A stretch of 64,000 bases of DNA from Bacteroidales bacterium (lineage in GTDB: Bacteria > Bacteroidota > Bacteroidia > Bacteroidales > Muribaculaceae). How positions within the stretch are numbered: the stretch's first letter is position 1; the number at the start of each line of letters is the position of its first letter. Shown here piece after piece: positions 4,065-64,000 of this stretch. The position numbers were made by a program, and so were the translations under genes. Under the pieces are notes generated by a model. It was not told where the DNA came from and made no database searches. It was given only the letters and a program-made list of their open reading frames with translations. The DNA is taken from positions 1 to 64,000 of the forward strand of contig CAJTFH010000006.1 of assembly GCA_910575545.1 (NCBI GenBank), in the 5' to 3' direction.

Positions 4065-6521
4065 TCAATTTATTACCATTATCTTGGTGACACAGGCCGA
4101 ACTGCTGCCGGAAGCGTTTTGAGATGCCATCACATAATAGACACCGCTTTTCACCCTCTCACCCGAAATGTTGCAACCGTCCCACACAAACATCGAACCG
4201 TCGCTTTTCCCCTGGGCAACCACATTTCCGGCTGAATCAGCTATTTTAACCAAGGAGTTTTCCATTAATCCTGCCACTGTTATCCATCCGCCGAAATCAG
4301 GTCTGACAGGATTAGGATAGGCATAAACCCCACTATAGTCATCCTTACCGGGCGCGGAAGTCGAATTATATTCGACCAAGCCGGAAGATGTGCCGAAATA
4401 AACCTTATTGCTGTTTGGGTCACACCCAACGGCATAGACGGTGTTAGATGGCAGAATTGAATTGTCGGTGGTGTAATGCTCTATGATCTCATCTCCGTTC
4501 TCGCTTACAAGATAAACACCCGACCCTATGGTGGAAATCCACTTGCGGTTCGACGAGTCAACAGCAATCTTCGACACCATCTGGTTATCTAACAGATAGT
4601 CGGCAAGATTCGTTCCGTCATTACGGGGAACTTTAAGATGGTTTACCGTTGCGGTTGTAGAGGTTATTTTCGACGGATCAGTTATTTCGAAAACACCGTT
4701 GTCAGTACCTACCCACACACGCCCCTTTTTATCCTCACACATGGCAAGAATATGTGAAAACGACAATTCTTTTCCATCTTGATCTATATACTTGTCGGTG
4801 ATTACAAATGTATCATCATCTAACGACACCGTACCTTTGTTATTAAACCACCCTATCGACTCAGACCATCGCCCGGGGGTGATTACTACCATATCGTGAT
4901 GAAAGCTGACTATCCCGAGACCATCCCTCGACCCTTTATTAAAATCATTCGGGAAAGTCTTCCAGTCAGATGACGTCACATTTTTTTTAGTTCTTTTCTC
5001 TTTACCTAAAACATATGTCTTGGGATTGTTAACACCATCGTCATTCATCATATAAACCCACAGATTACCTTGAGTATCAACCAATGGCTGGAAACCCCTA
5101 CATGCCCATCCGTCATATTTGAATCCAGAATTGGCAGCATAATATTTATGGGTTTGTTTTCCATCTTTAATCCTGTAGACACCCTCAAAAATAGTGCCGA
5201 TATAATATGCATCAGGGTCATCGGGATCTTCAAACATATGATATGTTCCTTTTACTGGCGACAATCCCGAATTACTGCCACTGCTATGGTTTTCCTTTTC
5301 CGCCTCAATTCCTGACACATCGGTAAATAATCCGTCTCTAATAGCAACTACTTTTGATTCAAGACCTGGACGCTCTTTTAAACCTAACGTATAATTATCA
5401 CCAAGATTATAGGCATATACTGTTCCGCTTGCCCCTACATGGATATCGTATATCTCATTTGTTTTCAGCTCAGATCCGGCGTTTACCGACTGGATTACAA
5501 CCATATTGGCTGGATTTGAGGCATCCATGTAACTAATCCCATCTTTTGAACCTACCCATACGCGCTTGGCATCGTCGTAATAAGACACAACATTGCCGTT
5601 ATTCTCTCTCAATCCGGGAATATAGGTGAATTTACCTGTCTTGTCATAACTATACAACCCCGCGTCGTTAACGGCATAAACTCCGTTTTTATAAATCCTT
5701 ACCGACTTGCTGACATTCCTGGCATACCCGGATCCGCCTCCGTTTTCCACATGTCTGTTGTCAACAGTAAGATTGTCAATATCTACGGTCATGAAATATA
5801 ACGACCCGTTATCGGCTGAATGAACGAGCAGAAGATTATTCTCCCCCACACCTTTCATATCCAGATAGCTGTTTCTGCCTGAATAATTCGTGCTCGGCTT
5901 CAGTTTGTCGAATGTAGTTATATTATCAGTCTGACGCGCAAAATACAACACTTTATCGCAAAGAACACCCATGATATTGCCCATCGCAAACACATTTGTC
6001 ACAGGATGCTGCGAATATGCGGTCACTTTAACTTCATTTTTCTTGCTGTCGAAAGTCAGCAGACCGAAATCGGCGGCTACATAAAAGTTATCCTTCCCAA
6101 AAGCGATATCATTGATTTTACGTGACGGAACCGACAGGATTGCATCTTTTATATCTGACATGTTCACAATCTTGCCGTCATCATAGAGTCTGTCGAGATT
6201 GCCCGATGAATAGGCCACCACTATGCTTCTACCGTCAGGATTTCCGAATATATCGGTTACACCACTATCATTCAAACAATTACCTACATTCAAACTGTTA
6301 ACCTCATAAGTGTCTTTATCTACTCTGAAAAGCGAACCTCCAGACATGCAGTAGGCATATGTATCGGTTTCAACAATTTTTTCAACACCGTTGAATGCAG
6401 AATGGATAGTCCATCCGCCAACGGCAAGCTGGGCCGGCAATGCCAACGGCATCATTGCCGCCAACATAATCAAAACAATGCTTTTTATTGCGTTTCTCAT
6501 ACGTATAATCTTATTTATCAA
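4065..6521 (-). CDS. porZ: T9SS component PorZ-like beta-propeller protein
   Basis: Surface protein of the T9SS attachment complex (PorU-PorV-PorQ-PorZ), where PorZ is thought to present A-LPS to the sortase. A signal peptide ends near PLALPAQ; the reading frame then shows repeated propeller blades of the two-component-regulator type, for example [15 protein letters not shown] and [15 protein letters not shown]. The last 80 residues form a type A sorting-like domain ([23 protein letters not shown]). The 818-residue length fits PorZ (about 780 in Porphyromonas). The first ATG overlaps the end of rdgB by 11 bp; an ATG at 6500 also gives a good signal peptide. A generic propeller cargo protein is possible, but the nearby porV supports PorZ. 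Confidence 0.8.
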
Positions 6522-7110
6522 AAAATTCCATAAGCCTGTCGAGTGCCCGTCTGCGGTGGCTTAATGAGTTCTTCTGATGCTCTGACATCTCTGCAAAGGT
6601 CTTGTCATAACCTGCAGGAACAAATACAGGATCATAACCGAAACCGGCCGATCCTCTTGGTGATTCTATTATGCAACCGTCAACCCGGCCCTCAAAACAA
6701 TGTTCTTCCCCTCCGGCTATAAGTGCTATGGCAGTACGGAAACATGCACTGCGGTCGGTTTTCCCTTCCATGTTACGCAACAACACTTCCATGTTCGCCA
6801 AAGAGTCATGATCTGAACTCACACCCTCCTCAGCAGCATATCTGGCCGATTTTACTCCCGGAGCACCGCCAAGCACTTTGACTTCAAGACCGGTATCATC
6901 GGCAAAACAGTCATAACCATAACGCTCCTTCACCCATCTGGCCTTGATGAGCGCATTCCCTTCGAGGGTTTCGGCTGTTTCGGGTATATCATCGTGGCAA
7001 CCTATTTCTGCAAGAGACTTTACCTCACAGTTATTGCCTACTATATCTCTTACTTCCTGTAGTTTGTGACTGTTGTTGGTTGCGAAAACAATTGTGGCCG
7101 GTAGCTTCAT
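6511..7110 (-). CDS. rdgB: XTP/dITP non-canonical purine NTP pyrophosphatase
   Basis: Hydrolyses XTP, dITP and ITP to monophosphates, cleaning the nucleotide pool. At 199 residues it has the Ham1/RdgB hallmarks: [12 protein letters not shown] near the N terminus, FADDTGLEV around the metal-binding site, [11 protein letters not shown], and [10 protein letters not shown] followed by [19 protein letters not shown]. It overlaps the first possible start of porZ, so the two are probably cotranscribed. Upstream, a hairpin at 7209-7259 separates it from leuS. Confidence 0.95.
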
Positions 7111-46640: not shown

Positions 46641-47228
46641 TCAGAGGGTGATCTGTATCCCTCTCTGGCCATGGGGGTAGGCTTGTTTTTGCCAAGCCTC
46701 TGAAGAAAGTTTCAGGAAATGGATGATTTGTGGGGAGGTGGCATTTGAGAGGGTGGTGTTGTCTGTAATCGCTTCATTCCCGGAATGGTCATATGTGGAT
46801 CCGCATTTTTCGGCAACGCGGCGCGAGCGCAGGTTGCCGTCAAAATGGCTTATCCATAGGCATGAGAGGCCTAAGTTATTGAAACCGTGCTCAACCAAGG
46901 CTTTGGCCGCTTCTGTCATATAGCCGTTGCCCCAGTGCGTTTTCCCCATCCAGTAGCCGATTTCCGCCTCACCCTCCGGATAACGGTTTGCGTCAGAGAC
47001 TATGCCGATGGCTCCTATGGGTTCTGCGGTAGATTTCAGAACAATAGCATAGGTTTCCGGTTCCGAAAACACTGTGCGTATGATTTCAAGGCTGTTTTTC
47101 ACAGATGTGTGTGGAGGCCACCCTGCGGCAGGGCCTACAGCCGGGTCTTTGGCATATCTGAACAGTGATTCGGCATCTTCGTCGGCCCAACGCCGGAGTA
47201 TCAGCCGCGATGTTTCAATTATCGGCAT
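46641..47228 (-). CDS. GNAT acetyltransferase, RimJ/RimL type
   Basis: 195 residues. ETSRLILRRWADEDAESLFRYA is the standard RimJ/RimL N terminus; EAEIGYWMGKTHWGNGYMTEAAKALVEHGF contains the acetyl-CoA pyrophosphate-binding loop, and LWISHFDGNLRSRRVAEKCG the following helix. Substrate could be a protein N terminus or a small molecule. Its start overlaps the end of the upstream beta-lactamase-like gene by 14 bp, so translation may be coupled. Confidence 0.88.
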   Translation of the reverse strand: MPIIETSRLILRRWADEDAESLFRYAKDPAVGPAAGWPPHTSVKNSLEIIRTVFSEPETYAIVLKSTAEPIGAIGIVSDANRYPEGEAEIGYWMGKTHWGNGYMTEAAKALVEHGFNNLGLSCLWISHFDGNLRSRRVAEKCGSTYDHSGNEAITDNTTLSNATSPQIIHFLKLSSEAWQKQAYPHGQRGIQITL

Positions 47229-47613
47229 TGTTGGTAAGATGGCTGTATATCGTGGCGGAAATCATGGCAATGATTTTTTCTGCCTCCTCTTGGCTACCGC
47301 CGAAATCTTTTATGAATACCGCGATGGAATATCCATTCCCGTCGGGAAGTGCCACATAGCCCCCGTCGTTGACCGCAACGACCTCCCCGCGAGAGTTGGT
47401 ATAACCCGAACCGGTGCGGTGGGCGAATCTCACTTTGCCGGGTTGCTCCTTGATTATCGCAGATAGTGAATTCTGCAAGCCGGCTTTATCCGTGATTCGG
47501 CCACTGTTATCCTTGTTATGGCTGTTGCCGCATGAAACCAGGCCCATGCAGAGCAACAGCATAGTTATGGCCCTGCCAAGGCCTTTATGGGAAATATTCA
47601 AGAATGATGTCAT
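47215..47613 (-). CDS. Lipoprotein carrying only the C-terminal part of a class A beta-lactamase
   Basis: 132 residues. A lipoprotein signal with lipobox LVSC (cysteine 28) is followed by about 30 linker residues and then a segment (62-126) that resembles the end of class A beta-lactamases: FAHRTGSGYTNSRGEVVAVNDG holds the KTG-box equivalent (HRTGSG, Lys replaced by Arg), then YVALPDGNGYSIAVFIKDF and a C-terminal helix. The SxxK, SDN and Glu166 regions are all missing, so it should not hydrolyse beta-lactams. The frame is intact with a proper signal. Either a deletion-derived remnant or a repurposed fragment. Confidence 0.7.
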   Translation of the reverse strand: MTSFLNISHKGLGRAITMLLLCMGLVSCGNSHNKDNSGRITDKAGLQNSLSAIIKEQPGKVRFAHRTGSGYTNSRGEVVAVNDGGYVALPDGNGYSIAVFIKDFGGSQEEAEKIIAMISATIYSHLTNNADN

Positions 47614-57293: not shown

Positions 57294-60200
57294 TCAGCGC
57301 TTGATAAAGCGCACCGCCGTGTGGTTGCCCTTACGGTCGGCGATATCAGCGATATATGTGCCGGGGGAAAGCGTGGCTGTAGATGCCGAAGCGCTCCCTT
57401 CCAGTTCGTGGGCTGCATGGAGCATCCCGTCGGGCGAATAGATGCGGAGAGTGTAGTCACCTTCGATTCCGATAACCGACAGAAGGTCTGCGTTAGGAGT
57501 GAGAACCTTCACATCGTTCCAGGATGCTGCATCGAGAGCGGAATATGCCGGGTCGGGAGCACCGATGCGGTCGAAGCAGGCGTAGGCGGGAACTTTGTCG
57601 GGTTGCGAGCTGTCGTAGCTGAAACGGAGTTTGCTGACTTTGCCCAGCGGAGACAGATCGAACCATTTCCAGTCGGAGAGAACGGACGTGGCGTCGGCGC
57701 GGGTCTCTGTTGAGGTGCGGAAATCAGCCAGCGGAATTTCAACCGTGGCTTTGACAGTACCGGCAGCATCGAGTCCTTCGATAAAGAGGGTGAAATAGTC
57801 GCCGTTTTCCGCAGAGAATTTCTCGCACCAGCCATCGCCGTTGAGCATTGAATTCATCGCATAGGCTGTGTTGGTGACATAGATACCAGGCACAGAAAGC
57901 CCTTCGTCGGAAGCAGCCCCGATAGCAACAGACATGTCGTTGCCTCCCATCATGTAGGCTACCCCGTAGTTGGACGAACCGTCGGCACCTCCCCCCACGA
58001 CATTGCGGAACTGGTCGTGGTAGTCGCGGAACTCCGTTGAGGTCTCGTTGGCATAGCCGTAGCCTGTCCATGAAGCATACAGGAACCAGGGATAGTTGGG
58101 GAAACGGAATGAGCCGCTGTAGAACATGTCGGAGGTGGCATCTTCGGGCAGGGTGGTGTCGAACATCCAGTAGCTTTCGGATTCAAGCGGCAGGTCGTCG
58201 AAATCGGCGATATGCAATTTGCCGTTAAGCACATCGACAAGGATTTTCGCACGGGCTTCCTGCCCGTCGGCAGAGGATACGCATATGCGGTATGTTCCGC
58301 TGACAGTAGCCTCGCGGGTCAGAACGGCGTCGCTGCCTACTACATTGCCCATCTGGTCAGTCCATTCATAGCTGTAGGGCGTTTTACCACCTGCAGCTAA
58401 TGCCTCAACGGAAAGTGTCTCACCTTCGTTGATTGCCGTGCCGTCGAAATCGGTCTCTACGGTCAGCGGCTCGATGGTTTCAAGCGTTGTGAACTCCTCG
58501 GATGCTATGATGTCAGACTCCATGCCCAATGCGCTCACTGCAAGGAAGTAGGCCTTATAGGCTGTGAGCTGGTCGAGGAACCGGAAATTGGTAGTGACTT
58601 CCGCATCAGCCTCGAAGGCCGCATGGCGCGATGATTTGATTTCGTCGGCTGTGGGAGCCTCTTCCGAGGCTTCCTTCACCATTGAATAGAGGCTTCCCCC
58701 TATGTTCCAGCGGGTGCGGACTGTTGCTGTGGCGTCGGTCAGGAGGCCTGTCTGCGGATAACCGTCGGCGATTGCGGGTGCATCCTGCGACACTGCAGCG
58801 AACTCATATGCCCCTGCGGTTGTCTGAGCAGGGCGTTCCTTTCCGTCGGCATCTGCCGCCACTGCGTCGAGACGCTCCATGGCTATCCCCTCCGGGGCTT
58901 GGAGCAGATGGAGGTCGGTTGCGCTAAGGAATTCCACTCTCTGCCAAAGTGAAGTGTTGTCGGAGGCGAGAACCTGGTAGCTTTCAAAGGTGGTGGGGGT
59001 GGTTTCATTGTCGATATTCCGGGTTCCGGCTGCGCCATAATAGACGTTTCCGCTGAAAGAAACAGATTCATAGACATTGACATCAGGCACGGTCATAACC
59101 GGACTGATTGACCCGCCCTGGAATATGTTGTTGCGGACTTCAAGGCCTGAAATGTCGGAGGTTTTGCCGGAGATTGCAAAGGGATAGCCCTCTTTGGCTG
59201 TCTCAGAGCCGCCGACAAACGAACTGTTGTGGGCAATCACGAGGTTGTGGATCTGGGCGGCAGCCTGGATGCCTCTCGAAGAAGTGCCATGACCTTTGAC
59301 GATTGACACTGCGTTGTTGACCACCATTGCTGGATGTGAGGCGTCCTCAGTGCCGGCAGCCCCGTTGGCACGCATATAGATGCCGGTGGAGTATTGGCCG
59401 AGGTCGTTTACCACTTTGTTGGAGGCGATGACGAATGCTCCGTGGGGCCAGTAGATATCCATTCCCTGGTAGTCGTTTTTGGTCGACGTGGAGCATGCCA
59501 CCGTGTTGCCTTCAACAGTGAAATCCTCGGCATTTGCCAGATAGATGCCTTTGGAGCGGGCATTAACAATCGTGTTGCCTTTAACCACAATCCCTTTCTC
59601 GTTTGGTTCGGCCACTTTCTGGCTTCCATACGAATAGATTGAGATGAATCCGTTTTCAAAATAGGAATCCTTGACTGTCAGATAGTCGCAGTTCTGGTTG
59701 GCTTCGCTGCCCGATTCGGTCTTTACAAGCGATGTGCCTGTAGAGCCTGAGGCTTCGGCGCCGATTACGGCGCAGTTGTCGATAACACCGTAGCGGGAAC
59801 TGTTGCGGTAGAGGATAATCGAGGGGTATGTAGCGCTTGAGGTAGAGAATGTGAGAGTACGGAAGTGGATGTAAGGGGTGTTCTCGACTGTCACCATCGG
59901 GTTTGACGTGTCGAGCGAGCCGGTAATCAGCACTGCGTCGCGGTTGCCCGATAGGGAGGTGAAAATCACCGGATGGGCTTCGGAAGTGCCCTGCACGTTT
60001 GCGATTTCTATGTTTTCTTTGTATTCCCCGTCTTCAAGCTGGAAGATAACGACATCTTCAACACCGCATTTCAGGGCGTTGACGGCAGCAGAGATGGTTT
60101 TATAAAGCGCCTGGTCAGACGGGCCTATGCGGTATGTGCCACCCATGCCTGTGATTATGTGGCGCGAGCCGGTGGCTTCAGGCACTTCTACAGATGCGCC

Positions 60201-63200
60201 ATTGGCAGTCAGGCTGCTCAGACGCACAGAAGCGACATTGTCGGGCACAGCCTTCGCCGAAAGGTCGGCGGCAATCCACAGGTTGTAGCTTCCGGCCTCA
60301 TCTACCACAATCGGTTCATCGAGGGTGAATGTGGCCACTCCGTCGGCAAGTTCTGTCACTTTTGCAATCTGCGTTGTGGCTGAATAAGAGGTTGACTTTC
60401 CGGTGTAGCAGAGCGAAGCGGAAATGATGTCGGCAGTATTGGTCGATGGGGTGAAGTCTGCTTTTATTTCCGAAATCGATATTTTGCCATAGTTTCCACT
60501 GACATTTAATGTTGCCTGGAGCAGAGCCACATTTTCCGCCCCACGGGTTACATCTTCATCTGAGGCGGGTGCGCACTCCACCGATTCCACCACATGGTCA
60601 ACAGGTTCGACAGGGGTGATGGCGATTGCGAAACCTGATGTGGAGCTGTAGGTGCTGCCGGTGAATGTGATGGTGATAGTGCCGTCGTCGGCTTTGGAGA
60701 AGAGATTGTCAGGGCCTGTTGTGGATGAATAGCCTGTGACAGAACCTATTTTTGCGTTTTCAACGGCTTCACGGCCGCTGTAGACATACATGCGGCCTGA
60801 GCCGATGCCGCAGTCAACGGTGTTGATGCCGATGATTTTCCCGACGGGTGGAACAAGCGTCACCTGGCCCTGGAAGTTCTTCGTGTAATTGCCGTCGGGG
60901 CCTCCGTCGTCGTAGAGAATCAGGGCCTTGTCGACATTCACAACAGCCTCGCCGGGCTGCATTATATGGATGTTTTTGGTAAGGCGAACTCCTTCGGGGT
61001 CGCCATTCTCAACTGCGTAGGTCTTGTCGCCGAACAGGAGGGCCGTCAAGGCGGCATCAACCTCAACGTCGCTCTCAACAGATTCATTAACATCGACAGC
61101 CACACGGAACCAGTTGCTCTGGTCGGCAAGCACGGTCGAGGTGTTGTCGGCCGATGGCAGAATAGTGACCTCGTTGCCTTCAGCAGGCATTCCGGCCTCA
61201 CCCCAGACCACTGCTTTCGTGGGGTCGTTGGTGTCGCCCGTCGACAGCAGGGTGATTTTGGCAATCTCCGAACCCCCTTTAAGGCGCAGTTTCACTCCTG
61301 TGAGGTGGAGAGGGTTCTTCAATCCTTCGGTGTAGACGTTGAAATCGATGACAGGTTCGCCGGTGGCACCCGGTGCGAGAATGGCATCGCTTGCCTGGAC
61401 GGCATCGACTTTCCGCACCTCCGCGTCATGGTCGATATACTGGCGCACGGCGGCTTTCCATCCTTTCCGGGTGTAATAGCTTGATGTGGTGTTGGGGTTG
61501 AATCTAACGGTCAGAGAACCGTCGGCAGCCGTAGAGCGTAATTTCTTGCCGGGGCCGGTTTCGGCTTTCGAGGCATCGTCGAGTTTCCACAGAAGGTTTG
61601 ACTGCCGGGTATCTGTGCCGCTGTATATTTCAAAAAGGGCTTTAGTGCCATATGATGTGGAAGCATACTGAACATCAAACGAAGAAAACTCCAATTCAAC
61701 CACAGCCCCCGGTTCCGACGGCATGAAAGTGACGATATGGTCGGCATTGACTGCCGGATAGTTTTCGCTGTAAGATGTGGGAGGCGCCGCAGGGCTGTAG
61801 AATTCCCATTCGCTGTAGAGGGTGTGGGAATGGGATCCTTCGGTCATGGTGCAATGGTTGCTGATTGTCACTTTGGCCGGGATGTCTTCGGCGGGAGTGG
61901 CCGAAGTATCACCAACTTTCACCGTGCCTAATTTTATTGATGCCTCCATTGCATTGAGGGCTTCGGGGTCGATATCGGCGGTAACGGCAAACCAGTTGTC
62001 TCCCTCGGCGAGACGGCATTCACCTGTAAGTGCCGTGCCTGATGCGGAGAATGGGCTTTCTGCGTAAAGGCCAGACAGTGGGGCGTTTTTGTTTTCCCCG
62101 AGTTGGAATACCGCCACTTTTTCGATGGCGGCGCTTTCAGCCCCTGCGGGAACTGTCACGGCCACTTCTCTTAACTGAATGGGATTCAGTTGGTTTTCTG
62201 CCTTGATATTGAAATAGAGCATCGGCACACGCTGCTGACCGGCATAGGCGAATGTTTCGGTTCCGGCGGCTTCAACATCGAGGCCTGTGAATGTCATCTG
62301 CGTGGGGACGAACTGCGACACTGTGGCTTCCCACCCTTTTTGCCGCTGGTTTTCGTTGCCTTGTTTTGATCTGAACCACACGGTCAGAGAGCCGTCGGGG
62401 GCAGATGATTTGATGTTTTTCGGATTTTCAACCAGGGTGGCGATAAGGTTCTCTTCCAATGCTTCCCGCCCGTTGTAGATTTTCATCACGTCGTTGTTGC
62501 CTACCGACACAGCCGAGGAATTGTCGAAAAGTTTGAACTGGGAGAAGTCGATTTTCACCGACTGCCCTTCGGTGGCGGGGATGAAGGTTGCAGTGCCCTC
62601 GGAGTTCATCGGGATATTCCCGTCTGCTCCACCTGCGTCGAAAAACGCAACATCATCGCCTACGGTATAAATCTGATGGGATTTGTCGGCAGCTATCAGG
62701 ATGCTGTTGGCGATTTCGAGGGTGGCGACCGCCGATGCATCGACCTGGCGGGACTCTCCGGCCACAGAAAGCGCCGATACCTCCGGAGCGGCGAGTGCAC
62801 CGGTCACGTCGGGTTTCACATCGGCATATATCGAATAGGGGTTGGTGCGTTTCAAAACGGCTCCTGACACGGCAAAAGATGTTTCACCCTCGTCAAGTGT
62901 GGCCACCAAGGCCTCTTCTTTAGGCTCGGCTGCGCTGTATAGGCGGATATTCTCCACTTTGCCGGAAGCGGCGGTGGCTGTGAGGTCGAATGAGAGGTTG
63001 TCGATTGACAGCGGGTTGAGAGTGCCGTCGGTGGCTATGTCGAAATTCAGCAACGGTATGTTTTTTGCCCCGCGCCAGGCCTGTGTGGAGGCATTCGTCG
63101 CGGTGGCGCTGACAAAGGTCATATCGTGTGGCACACCGGCTGTCACCGTTGCGGTGTAGGTGCCGGTGATTGTGCCGGAACTTGCCGCAGGGGCGGCATA

Positions 63201-63617
63201 CAGCACACAGAGTTTACCGGAAACGGCGGTGTATTCAATTCCCTCCTCCGCAGGTGTCATCGCCACGAGGTATCCCTCCGGAGCAGGTTTTGAATAGCCT
63301 GTGAAACTGGTTTTAAGAGCTTCGTCACCGTCATAAACAAATACCACCGGCTTGTCGCCACGCAGGCAATTGAAGTCGGTAAAGGTTATCGACACCGGAT
63401 CCCCTTCGTTCTCCGCGGAGAAAGTAACCCATCCGCCATTAAAAGTCGGAGGATTTGATGGATAGCCCATGTTGTGGTAAATCACACCCTCGGGGCCTAC
63501 GGTGTAGTCACATTCCGCAGTATGGAGGTCTTTTTTCGGATGGTTCCATTCCGGCGTTGCCGCCACGGTTGTAGCCATGGCAAACATTGCAATCAAAAAA
63601 GTCGGAAGACGTTTCAT
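57294..63617 (-). CDS. Giant modular T9SS-exported surface protein with DUF4465-like module
   Basis: 2107 residues with a signal peptide (MKRLPTFLIAMFAMATTVAA). Residues 25-1150: four CUB-like beta modules (for example VAFFDAGGADGNIPMNSEG, ILYDDGGPDGNYTKNFQG), each followed by a domain like the N-terminal BNR-neuraminidase-associated one (LLNFDIATDGTLNPLSIDNL). About 1160-1605: right-handed beta-helix (IVVKGNTIVNARSKGIYLAN). About 1610-1797: fibronectin- and Ig-like domains. About 1800-2025: DUF4465-like module (VVGGGADGSSNYGVAYM, PGIYVTNTAYAMNSMLNGDG, AYACFDRIG). About 2030-2107: T9SS sorting domain (LSPGTYIADI). A cobalamin riboswitch lies about 250 nt upstream on the same strand with no gene between, so expression should fall when B12 is plentiful. 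A role in surface capture of cobalamin is inference. Confidence 0.85.
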   Translation of the reverse strand: MKRLPTFLIAMFAMATTVAATPEWNHPKKDLHTAECDYTVGPEGVIYHNMGYPSNPPTFNGGWVTFSAENEGDPVSITFTDFNCLRGDKPVVFVYDGDEALKTSFTGYSKPAPEGYLVAMTPAEEGIEYTAVSGKLCVLYAAPAASSGTITGTYTATVTAGVPHDMTFVSATATNASTQAWRGAKNIPLLNFDIATDGTLNPLSIDNLSFDLTATAASGKVENIRLYSAAEPKEEALVATLDEGETSFAVSGAVLKRTNPYSIYADVKPDVTGALAAPEVSALSVAGESRQVDASAVATLEIANSILIAADKSHQIYTVGDDVAFFDAGGADGNIPMNSEGTATFIPATEGQSVKIDFSQFKLFDNSSAVSVGNNDVMKIYNGREALEENLIATLVENPKNIKSSAPDGSLTVWFRSKQGNENQRQKGWEATVSQFVPTQMTFTGLDVEAAGTETFAYAGQQRVPMLYFNIKAENQLNPIQLREVAVTVPAGAESAAIEKVAVFQLGENKNAPLSGLYAESPFSASGTALTGECRLAEGDNWFAVTADIDPEALNAMEASIKLGTVKVGDTSATPAEDIPAKVTISNHCTMTEGSHSHTLYSEWEFYSPAAPPTSYSENYPAVNADHIVTFMPSEPGAVVELEFSSFDVQYASTSYGTKALFEIYSGTDTRQSNLLWKLDDASKAETGPGKKLRSTAADGSLTVRFNPNTTSSYYTRKGWKAAVRQYIDHDAEVRKVDAVQASDAILAPGATGEPVIDFNVYTEGLKNPLHLTGVKLRLKGGSEIAKITLLSTGDTNDPTKAVVWGEAGMPAEGNEVTILPSADNTSTVLADQSNWFRVAVDVNESVESDVEVDAALTALLFGDKTYAVENGDPEGVRLTKNIHIMQPGEAVVNVDKALILYDDGGPDGNYTKNFQGQVTLVPPVGKIIGINTVDCGIGSGRMYVYSGREAVENAKIGSVTGYSSTTGPDNLFSKADDGTITITFTGSTYSSTSGFAIAITPVEPVDHVVESVECAPASDEDVTRGAENVALLQATLNVSGNYGKISISEIKADFTPSTNTADIISASLCYTGKSTSYSATTQIAKVTELADGVATFTLDEPIVVDEAGSYNLWIAADLSAKAVPDNVASVRLSSLTANGASVEVPEATGSRHIITGMGGTYRIGPSDQALYKTISAAVNALKCGVEDVVIFQLEDGEYKENIEIANVQGTSEAHPVIFTSLSGNRDAVLITGSLDTSNPMVTVENTPYIHFRTLTFSTSSATYPSIILYRNSSRYGVIDNCAVIGAEASGSTGTSLVKTESGSEANQNCDYLTVKDSYFENGFISIYSYGSQKVAEPNEKGIVVKGNTIVNARSKGIYLANAEDFTVEGNTVACSTSTKNDYQGMDIYWPHGAFVIASNKVVNDLGQYSTGIYMRANGAAGTEDASHPAMVVNNAVSIVKGHGTSSRGIQAAAQIHNLVIAHNSSFVGGSETAKEGYPFAISGKTSDISGLEVRNNIFQGGSISPVMTVPDVNVYESVSFSGNVYYGAAGTRNIDNETTPTTFESYQVLASDNTSLWQRVEFLSATDLHLLQAPEGIAMERLDAVAADADGKERPAQTTAGAYEFAAVSQDAPAIADGYPQTGLLTDATATVRTRWNIGGSLYSMVKEASEEAPTADEIKSSRHAAFEADAEVTTNFRFLDQLTAYKAYFLAVSALGMESDIIASEEFTTLETIEPLTVETDFDGTAINEGETLSVEALAAGGKTPYSYEWTDQMGNVVGSDAVLTREATVSGTYRICVSSADGQEARAKILVDVLNGKLHIADFDDLPLESESYWMFDTTLPEDATSDMFYSGSFRFPNYPWFLYASWTGYGYANETSTEFRDYHDQFRNVVGGGADGSSNYGVAYMMGGNDMSVAIGAASDEGLSVPGIYVTNTAYAMNSMLNGDGWCEKFSAENGDYFTLFIEGLDAAGTVKATVEIPLADFRTSTETRADATSVLSDWKWFDLSPLGKVSKLRFSYDSSQPDKVPAYACFDRIGAPDPAYSALDAASWNDVKVLTPNADLLSVIGIEGDYTLRIYSPDGMLHAAHELEGSASASTATLSPGTYIADIADRKGNHTAVRFIKR

Positions 63618-63870
63618 GAAAAAATGTGTTGTTGGTTAATAATTATCAATAATTGCGATAACCATCTTCCACACAATGAAATGCCGGGTTGAAAAAGGAT
63701 AGACACAACGATGCCGGCGAAACCGCGAATAGGGATTCGTCGTTGCAAGCAGTCAGACCCGCAGGTCGCCTGTTGTGATGAAATCGGTTTGGCTTAAACG
63801 GAAAATGTCGGCAGCCCCAGTCTTAATCCTCGAAGACATATCAGTTGGTTTGATGGCTAAAAACGACGCA

Positions 63871-64000
63871 CAGGCAGGTCTTCTGACTTATCTTCATTTC
63901 CTGTCGGCCTTGCCTTCCCACGCCCCTTTACAGACAGGGGGCAGTGGCATTTCCTTACGGAACCGGCCAGACAAGATGGATTTTACAAGTGTCGACTCTT
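63871..64000 (-). promoter_or_regulatory. Cobalamin (B12) riboswitch, 3' part; 5' part beyond window
   Basis: Read on the minus strand: ATGCCACTGCCCC (conserved GCCACTG at 63948-63941 and neighbours), GTGGGAAGGC (GGGAAGGC at 63919-63912), then the B12 box AAGTCAGAAGACCTGCCTG (63889-63871). Order and spacing match the AdoCbl/cobalamin riboswitch core. The upstream half, expected to contain the GGGAA..CCGG segment, lies past base 64000. The next gene downstream on this strand is the giant T9SS protein, start 63617. The intervening 250 nt contain a short GACC-TGC-GGGTC hairpin (in 63740-63765) but no reading frame of note. Confidence 0.9.

What the first reader, a model, noticed from the sequence alone, without database searches (positions are those of the whole stretch)
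63617..64000. Cobalamin riboswitch directly upstream of a giant T9SS cargo gene
The minus strand carries the B12 box (63889-63871), GGGAAGGC and GCCACTG in correct order, and the first gene downstream is the 2107-residue T9SS surface protein. Known B12-riboswitch targets in Bacteroidetes are BtuB receptors, BtuG/BtuH-type surface lipoproteins, transport and synthesis genes. A large non-lipoprotein exported by T9SS as the regulated product would be a new kind of B12-linked surface factor.
Basis: partly seen in the sequence, partly recalled or inferred. Interest (0 to 1): 0.9.

Follow-up and report, generated by a model that had tools for sequence, protein, structure and literature searches.

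The report
B12-riboswitch-controlled giant B12-binding surface protein
A gut-type bacterium keeps its only vitamin B12 sensor RNA in front of a 2,107-residue surface protein that carries a known B12-binding module, and this pairing recurs in many related bacteria, so a very large B12 catcher seems to be a regular but undescribed part of B12 scavenging in this order.

Summary
Extended past the window edge, the element is a full-length RF00174 cobalamin riboswitch (71.3 bits, C6:63856-64124, minus strand), the only one in a 99.99% complete genome. No competing gene, terminator or second promoter was found before the 2107-aa gene. The model of this domain matches B12-bound 9HMU and BtuJ1, and both key tyrosines are present. 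The rest is four alternating CUB-like/BNR_assoc_N-like pairs, then a beta-helix. Of 80 related loci in Bacteroidales, 71 hold complete giants (1647-2616 aa). All 71 carry DUF4465; 67 have a same-strand riboswitch upstream, directly or in riboswitch-btuB-btuG-btuH-giant operons. Three of the other four lie at contig ends; the fourth probably has a weaker riboswitch. Most likely it is a B12-repressed extracellular B12 capture protein. It is not categorically new: eight DUF4465 proteins bind B12, and 229/824 were already annotated with a T9SS tail. The giant multidomain, riboswitch-controlled form appears undescribed in the papers searched. A same-genus relative lacks DUF4465, so the stalk may have its own role.

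The parts
63856..64000 (-). Cobalamin riboswitch aptamer, 3' half; continues outside the window to C6:64124. B12 box 63889-63873, GGGAAGGC 63919-63912, GCCACTG 63948-63942
   Evidence: RF00174 full length 71.3 bits; 23.1 bits in the window alone. A Bacteroidetes-type -7 box TAACTTTG sits at C6:64126-64119, just 5' of the aptamer
63820..63837 (-). Putative P13/L13 hairpin GUCUU-CGAGGAUU-AAGAC; loop GGAUU is complementary to AAUCC of aptamer loop L5 (kissing loop)
   Evidence: Sequence; kept in the sister species L194 although the rest of the leader diverges; TCGNGG core found after 52 of 84 riboswitches against 224 of 1600 random windows. Pairing itself is inferred
63618..63855 (-). 238-nt leader between aptamer and start codon; no terminator or second TAnnTTTG box found; contains a 28-codon ORF (63839-63753)
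57294..63617 (-). Giant B12-riboswitch target gene, 2107 aa
   Evidence: ORF; full-length relatives in 7 sampled genera of the family, 27-37% identity, and in 80 loci of Bacteroidales
63558..63617 (-). N-terminal export signal (MKRLPTFLIAMFAMATTVAA); no lipobox cysteine seen
   Evidence: by inspection; no signal-peptide predictor was available
60159..63485 (-). Stalk-like N-terminal part: four alternating CUB-like and BNR_assoc_N-like modules (residues about 45-1153)
   Evidence: PF14873 three stretches and CUB over Pfam cut-offs; four of each found by profiles built from one repeat, with the first CUB-like one weak
58773..60170 (-). Right-handed beta-helix domain (residues 1150-1615)
   Evidence: AlphaFold2 pLDDT 92.3; PDB neighbours are beta-helix glycan enzymes and adhesins, best lacto-N-biosidases E 2e-7, TM about 0.5
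58218..58775 (-). Linker/Ig-like region (residues 1615-1800)
   Evidence: weak matches to Ig/PKD-like chains in the PDB
57543..58211 (-). DUF4465 B12-binding domain (residues about 1803-2025; Pfam hit 1847-2018)
   Evidence: PF14717 E 3e-42; 9hmu E 5e-27 by sequence; model pLDDT 92.3, Foldseek 9hmu E 1e-19, BtuJ1 E 3e-14
57861..57863 (-). Codon of Tyr1919, equivalent of BtuJ1 Tyr146 (DE loop helix)
   Evidence: alignment
57582..57584 (-). Codon of Tyr2012, equivalent of BtuJ1 Tyr245 (HI loop)
   Evidence: alignment; Tyr in 40 of 42 giants
57297..57488 (-). T9SS type A sorting domain (residues 2044-2107)
   Evidence: TIGR04183 24.1 bits, cut-off 23; SprA and two PorU-type sortases in the genome

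Best explanation
The gene encodes a giant extracellular vitamin B12 capture protein that is made when B12 is scarce. A promoter just 5' of the aptamer starts the transcript. When adenosylcobalamin (or another cobamide) is plentiful, the class-I aptamer binds it and the L5-L13 kissing loop forms, lowering expression; when it is scarce, the gene is on. The protein leaves by the Sec route and the type IX system. Its C-terminal sorting domain is removed and the chain is anchored or released at the surface. The DUF4465 jellyroll next to the sorting domain then binds cobamide and passes it to BtuB-BtuG. The four CUB/BNR_assoc_N-like pairs and the beta-helix form a long outer part that probably holds a glycan or matrix partner. 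Shown here: the riboswitch, its position and conservation, the domain make-up, B12-pocket residues, operon company and the presence of T9SS and Btu genes. Inferred: repression by B12, B12 binding by this copy, surface location, hand-over to BtuB-BtuG, and the role of the outer part.
For: Full-length RF00174 directly upstream, sole one in the genome. DUF4465 with both key tyrosines and a confident model whose best PDB matches are B12-bound DUF4465 structures. DUF4465 as a B12-binding domain: eight family members tested in PMC13398666. All 7 giants in 59 sampled family genomes have a riboswitch directly upstream. In genome contigs, found with patterns from the CUB-like repeats and not from DUF4465, 71 of 71 complete giants carry DUF4465 and 67 of 71 have a same-strand riboswitch upstream, 44 of them within 27-360 nt; Infernal confirms 13 riboswitches in 12 loci. 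In 8 loci the order is riboswitch-btuB-btuG-btuH-giant. The sister species of L194 and Prevotella aurantiaca also have one riboswitch only, before the giant. The genome has btuB-btuG, a PF01497 binding-protein gene at the head of a btuFCD-like ABC set, a B12-binding-domain gene with the size and neighbour of methylmalonyl-CoA mutase, SprA and PorU. B. theta riboswitch operons are repressed by B12 in reporters (PMC12751083).
Against: Nothing was measured. The giant of a same-genus genome (L077, 1745 aa) is riboswitch-headed but lacks DUF4465. The HI loop of this copy reads KVPAY, not NTPxY; however the proven binder D5EK51 has VPSY. The own riboswitch scores lower (71 bits) than most in the family and the expression platform is unresolved. 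TIGR04183 recognises only 16 of 72 tails in the giant set. The 71 of 71 figure may be inflated because tblastn ranking favours full-length relatives.
Confidence: 0.75

Rival explanations
1. The giant is mainly an adhesin or glycan-binding factor that uses low B12 as an environmental cue; B12 binding is minor or lost in this copy.
For: Most of the chain is CUB-like, BNR_assoc_N-like and beta-helix; the beta-helix resembles glycan enzymes and the adhesin PfbA. The same-genus L077 giant keeps the riboswitch but not DUF4465.
Against: DUF4465 is in all 71 complete giants and is about as well conserved as the stalk or better; the pocket tyrosines are kept; several giants sit inside btuB-btuG-btuH operons.
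Confidence: 0.15
2. The riboswitch is a decayed or bystander element and does not set expression of the giant; its original target was the btuB operon, which now lacks one.
For: 71.3 bits is low for this family, P6 region is enlarged, the leader is 238 nt, and own btuB-btuG has no detectable riboswitch.
Against: All core motifs and a plausible L13 are intact and conserved in L194; a promoter box abuts the aptamer; giants across Bacteroidales have their own riboswitch, so the association is ancestral, not a leftover.
Confidence: 0.06
3. The riboswitch turns the gene on with B12, or acts through the small leader ORF, so that the protein is made when B12 is plentiful (storage or display).
For: A 28-codon ORF starts within the L13 hairpin; a riboswitch-uORF interplay is known in M. 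tuberculosis (title and abstract of PMC11260477).
Against: B. theta B12 riboswitch operons tested with reporters are repressed by B12; the leader ORF is not seen in most giants.
Confidence: 0.04

Closest known systems
BtuJ1/BtuJ2 (DUF4465, IPR027828) of Bacteroides thetaiotaomicron
   Same: DUF4465 fold, pocket tyrosines, B12-riboswitch control, B12-uptake operon company
   Different: BtuJ are small lipoproteins of about 250-300 residues; this is a 2107-aa non-lipoprotein with a T9SS tail and four CUB/BNR_assoc_N-like pairs plus a beta-helix
T9SS-tailed DUF4465 proteins counted in PMC12751083 (229 of 824 carry IPR026444)
   Same: DUF4465 plus C-terminal extracellular targeting motif
   Different: that paper gives only a count; no giant architecture, riboswitch link or operon position is described in the section read
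D5EK51 of Coraliomargarita akajimensis (PDB 9HMU)
   Same: closest solved structure by sequence (E 5e-27) and fold (E 1e-19), including the VP[SA]Y variant of the HI loop
   Different: single-domain protein from another phylum
BtuG and BtuH surface lipoproteins
   Same: riboswitch-controlled surface B12 binders, often neighbours of the giant in operons
   Different: other folds; lipid-anchored

Membership tests
RF00174 cobalamin riboswitch | covariance-model match over the curated score, full length | tested here: met
   71.3 bits against 31.5, positions 1-189
RF00174 cobalamin riboswitch | L5-L13 kissing loop typical of the class with an expression platform | tested here: inconclusive
   candidate L13 with loop GGAUU complementary to L5 AAUCC; pairing not proven
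RF00174 cobalamin riboswitch | ligand binding and control of expression | not testable with these tools
   needs in-line probing or reporter assay
DUF4465 / BtuJ B12-binding family | PF14717 match over the gathering score | tested here: met
   145.4 bits against 25
DUF4465 / BtuJ B12-binding family | augmented jellyroll fold | tested here: met
   model pLDDT 92.3, Foldseek to 9hmu, 9fct, 9qpm, 4jqr
DUF4465 / BtuJ B12-binding family | conserved HI-loop Tyr (BtuJ1 Tyr245) and DE-helix Tyr (Tyr146) | tested here: met
   Tyr2012 and Tyr1919
DUF4465 / BtuJ B12-binding family | Asn241 and Thr242 of the HI loop | tested here: not met
   own loop is DKVPAY; the proven binder D5EK51 has GVPSY, so this pair is not required for binding in the family
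DUF4465 / BtuJ B12-binding family | binds cobalamin | not testable with these tools
   needs purified protein
BtuJ lipoproteins proper | N-terminal lipidation signal, small size | tested here: not met
   2107 aa, no lipobox cysteine in the N-terminus on inspection
T9SS cargo (type A) | C-terminal TIGR04183 domain over cut-off | tested here: met
   24.1 bits against 23; marginal
T9SS cargo (type A) | T9SS machinery in the genome | tested here: met
   SprA 2722.8 bits, two PorU-type sortases 901 and 535 bits
T9SS cargo (type A) | export and CTD cleavage | not testable with these tools
   needs proteomics

The most novel reading that the evidence does not exclude
The giants form a distinct class of B12 acquisition device in which the outer CUB/BNR_assoc_N/beta-helix part grips a glycoprotein or mucin-bound form of the vitamin (for example host B12-carrier glycoproteins) and the membrane-proximal DUF4465 domain takes the cobamide, so the bacteria take B12 from carriers rather than only from solution.
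Probability: 0.1. Interest if true: 0.85.

Novelty: new variant of a known kind. Interest (0 to 1): 0.58.

Why it matters
B12 supply shapes competition in gut communities, and the known Bacteroidetes catchers are small surface lipoproteins or vesicle proteins. A conserved family of 2,000-residue, apparently T9SS-exported B12 binders under B12-riboswitch control adds an overlooked part to that machinery in Muribaculaceae, Prevotella and relatives. In this genome, its sister and Prevotella aurantiaca it is the only riboswitch-headed gene found. Its stalk raises a testable question: what, besides free cobamide, does it hold? Cultured carriers exist (Bacteroides salyersiae DSM 18765, Xylanibacter muris, Muribaculaceae Isolate-013, Prevotella aurantiaca).

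Tried and rejected
(1) Chance or truncated riboswitch: rejected by the full-length hit. (2) Another gene, terminator or promoter between element and gene: none found; my own hairpin scan also listed none, but it missed the known FopS terminator, so terminator absence is only moderately secure. (3) A riboswitch before the own btuB-btuG operon that had been overlooked: relaxed Rfam scan of the upstream region found none, and only about 170 nt separate it from the preceding ORF. (4) A conserved leader ORF: present in this genome and L194 but not general, so not adopted as the mechanism. (5) FopS sRNA as part of the switch: not found near other riboswitches (only one other copy, 5.4 kb away). (6) Downstream rlmL and purD as co-regulated B12 genes: housekeeping families, 156 nt or more away, no B12 link. 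(7) A simple GGATT-hairpin count for L13 was too strict (11 of 84); the looser TCGNGG core is enriched. (8) Plasmid origin: no plasmid match to the leader and aptamer. (9) Searches were faulty inputs and gave nothing; one search was an incomplete submission.

Full report
OBSERVATION. The window ends inside the element, so Rfam gives nothing over threshold in the window and a truncated 23.1-bit RF00174 match with relaxed settings. The genome in which the window lies (G000, 3.27 Mb, 73 contigs, 99.99% complete) continues past 64000. There the aptamer is complete: C6:63856-64124, minus strand, 71.3 bits, all 189 model positions. It is the only RF00174 match in the genome.

LEADER. A Bacteroidetes-type -7 box, TAACTTTG, lies at 64126-64119, abutting the aptamer. 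Such a box was found near 10 of 81 riboswitches of related loci, against 1.7% of random windows. Downstream of the aptamer a hairpin GUCUU-CGAGGAUU-AAGAC (63837-63820) offers GGAUU to AAUCC of L5. It is kept in the sister species L194, where the rest of the leader has diverged. The related core TCGNGG occurs behind 52 of 84 riboswitches against 14% of random windows. That fits a class-I switch with an L5-L13 kissing loop; the pairing is inferred. No minus-strand terminator and no second promoter box were found before the start codon, so control may be translational; this is not settled.

PROTEIN. The target (57294-63617, 2107 aa) has an N-terminal export signal by eye. Pfam finds BNR_assoc_N (three stretches), CUB and, decisively, DUF4465 at 1847-2018 (E 3e-42); NCBIfam finds a T9SS type A tail at 2044-2107, just over cut-off. 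Profiles built from one repeat show four CUB-like and four BNR_assoc_N-like modules in alternation in nearly every one of seven aligned giants. The beta-helix (1150-1615) models well (pLDDT 92.3) and resembles lacto-N-biosidases, PL6 lyases and the adhesin PfbA at TM about 0.5; that is fold-level only. The DUF4465 model (pLDDT 92.3) finds B12-bound 9HMU first (E 1e-19) and BtuJ1 next (E 3e-14). Tyr1919 and Tyr2012 match BtuJ1 Tyr146 and Tyr245. The own HI loop is KVPAY and lacks the Asn-Thr of BtuJ1; so does D5EK51 (GVPSY), which was crystallised with B12.

GENOME. btuB and btuG stand at C10:10.7-13.9 kb, 72% and 65% identical to those of a same-genus genome, with no riboswitch detectable upstream, although the same-genus operon has one. 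A btuF-like binding protein with a neighbouring permease and ATPase is on C11 (the permease and ATPase were named from sequence by eye). The only strong B12-binding-domain hit is a 712-aa frame beside a 624-aa one on C1, the layout of methylmalonyl-CoA mutase. T9SS core genes SprA and two PorU-type sortases are present.

CONSERVATION IN THE FAMILY. In 59 family genomes DUF4465 occurs in 38 and RF00174 in all 59. Seven proteins are giants (2089-2345 aa), from seven genera, and all seven have a riboswitch directly upstream. Of 118 riboswitches read, the first gene is BtuB in 58, a DUF4465 protein in 21, BtuG-like in 14, BtuH-like in 3; 43 operons contain a protein with a T9SS-like tail by a home-made profile.

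CONSERVATION BEYOND. A scan of genome contigs with patterns from the CUB-like repeats gave 142 relatives, the best 80 kept. They come from Muribaculaceae, Prevotella and Prevotellaceae, Bacteroides salyersiae, Porphyromonadaceae, Paludibacteraceae and a few other MAGs. Of 71 complete giants (1647-2616 aa) all carry DUF4465. A same-strand riboswitch lies upstream in 67: 44 directly (27-360 nt), the rest further off, mostly behind other genes. In 8 loci the order is riboswitch-btuB-btuG-btuH-giant, and in most of the others one btuH-like gene intervenes; the btuH-like gene matches PDB 7biz and 8blw. Infernal confirmed 13 riboswitches in 12 loci and several more at the expected places in whole genomes. 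Three of the four loci without a riboswitch begin close to a contig end; the fourth (L227) has a 48.6-bit match in its genome at coordinates that fit (contig identity inferred). The sister species of L194 and Prevotella aurantiaca have one riboswitch each, before the giant. The tblastn ranking favours full-length relatives, so giants without DUF4465, such as L077 of the same genus, may be under-counted.

MECHANISM. Best reading: a B12-repressed extracellular cobamide catcher, exported by T9SS, that supplies BtuB-BtuG. Because the DUF4465 domain is next to the C-terminal sorting domain, it would sit near the membrane if the chain is anchored, with the repeats outward; this is inference from how T9SS cargo is anchored. 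What the outer part holds is unknown; its fold relatives suggest glycans.

KNOWN OR NEW. DUF4465 as a B12-binding domain (eight members) is PMC13398666; BtuJ1/J2 and the count of T9SS-type tails (229 of 824) are PMC12751083. BtuG and BtuH are known riboswitch-controlled surface lipoproteins (PMC10404256, PMC8941943). I found no description of the giant architecture or its conserved riboswitch link in five searches of the open library, which holds only part of the literature. I therefore call it a new variant of a known kind.

Noticed in passing
contig C6:64247-64314 (-), L002:1247-1314, outside the window: A FopS sRNA (RF04319, 59.2 bits) with its own promoter-like box lies 123 nt upstream of the aptamer on the same strand; not found near other giants.
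   Followed up: partly
63839-63753 (-): A 28-codon ORF (MSSRIKTGAADIFRLSQTDFITTGDLRV) starts inside the L13 hairpin; L194 has a 35-codon one with the same first seven residues. Most other giants lack it.
   Followed up: partly
G000 C10:10651-15083 (L091): The btuB-btuG-lipoprotein cluster of this genome has no detectable riboswitch although the same-genus G043 operon has one.
   Followed up: yes
L077:4338-9575 (-), genome G022 of the same genus: A riboswitch-headed 1745-aa giant with BNR_assoc_N, beta-helix and T9SS-like tail but no DUF4465.
   Followed up: partly
L086:7374-9659 (-), L155:6876-9800 (-), L124:5962-9798 (-): Riboswitch-headed proteins joining a BtuG-type (DUF5074) propeller to a T9SS-like tail: a second B12-binding fold apparently routed to T9SS in this family.
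   Followed up: partly
L196, L201, L207, L229: Tandem pairs: a 463-468 aa DUF4465 protein and a giant, each with its own riboswitch.
   Followed up: no
L085:5486-5696 (+) and gene 5729-6871: B12 riboswitch directly before a 380-aa protein with a weak match to cobalamin-independent methionine synthase, the expected target logic for a B12-free alternative.
   Followed up: no
47215-47613 (-): A 132-aa ORF matching only the C-terminal third of class A beta-lactamases; possibly a remnant or a frame broken by an error.
   Followed up: no
G000 C30:9383-17542: Two PorU-type T9SS sortase genes lie close together.
   Followed up: no
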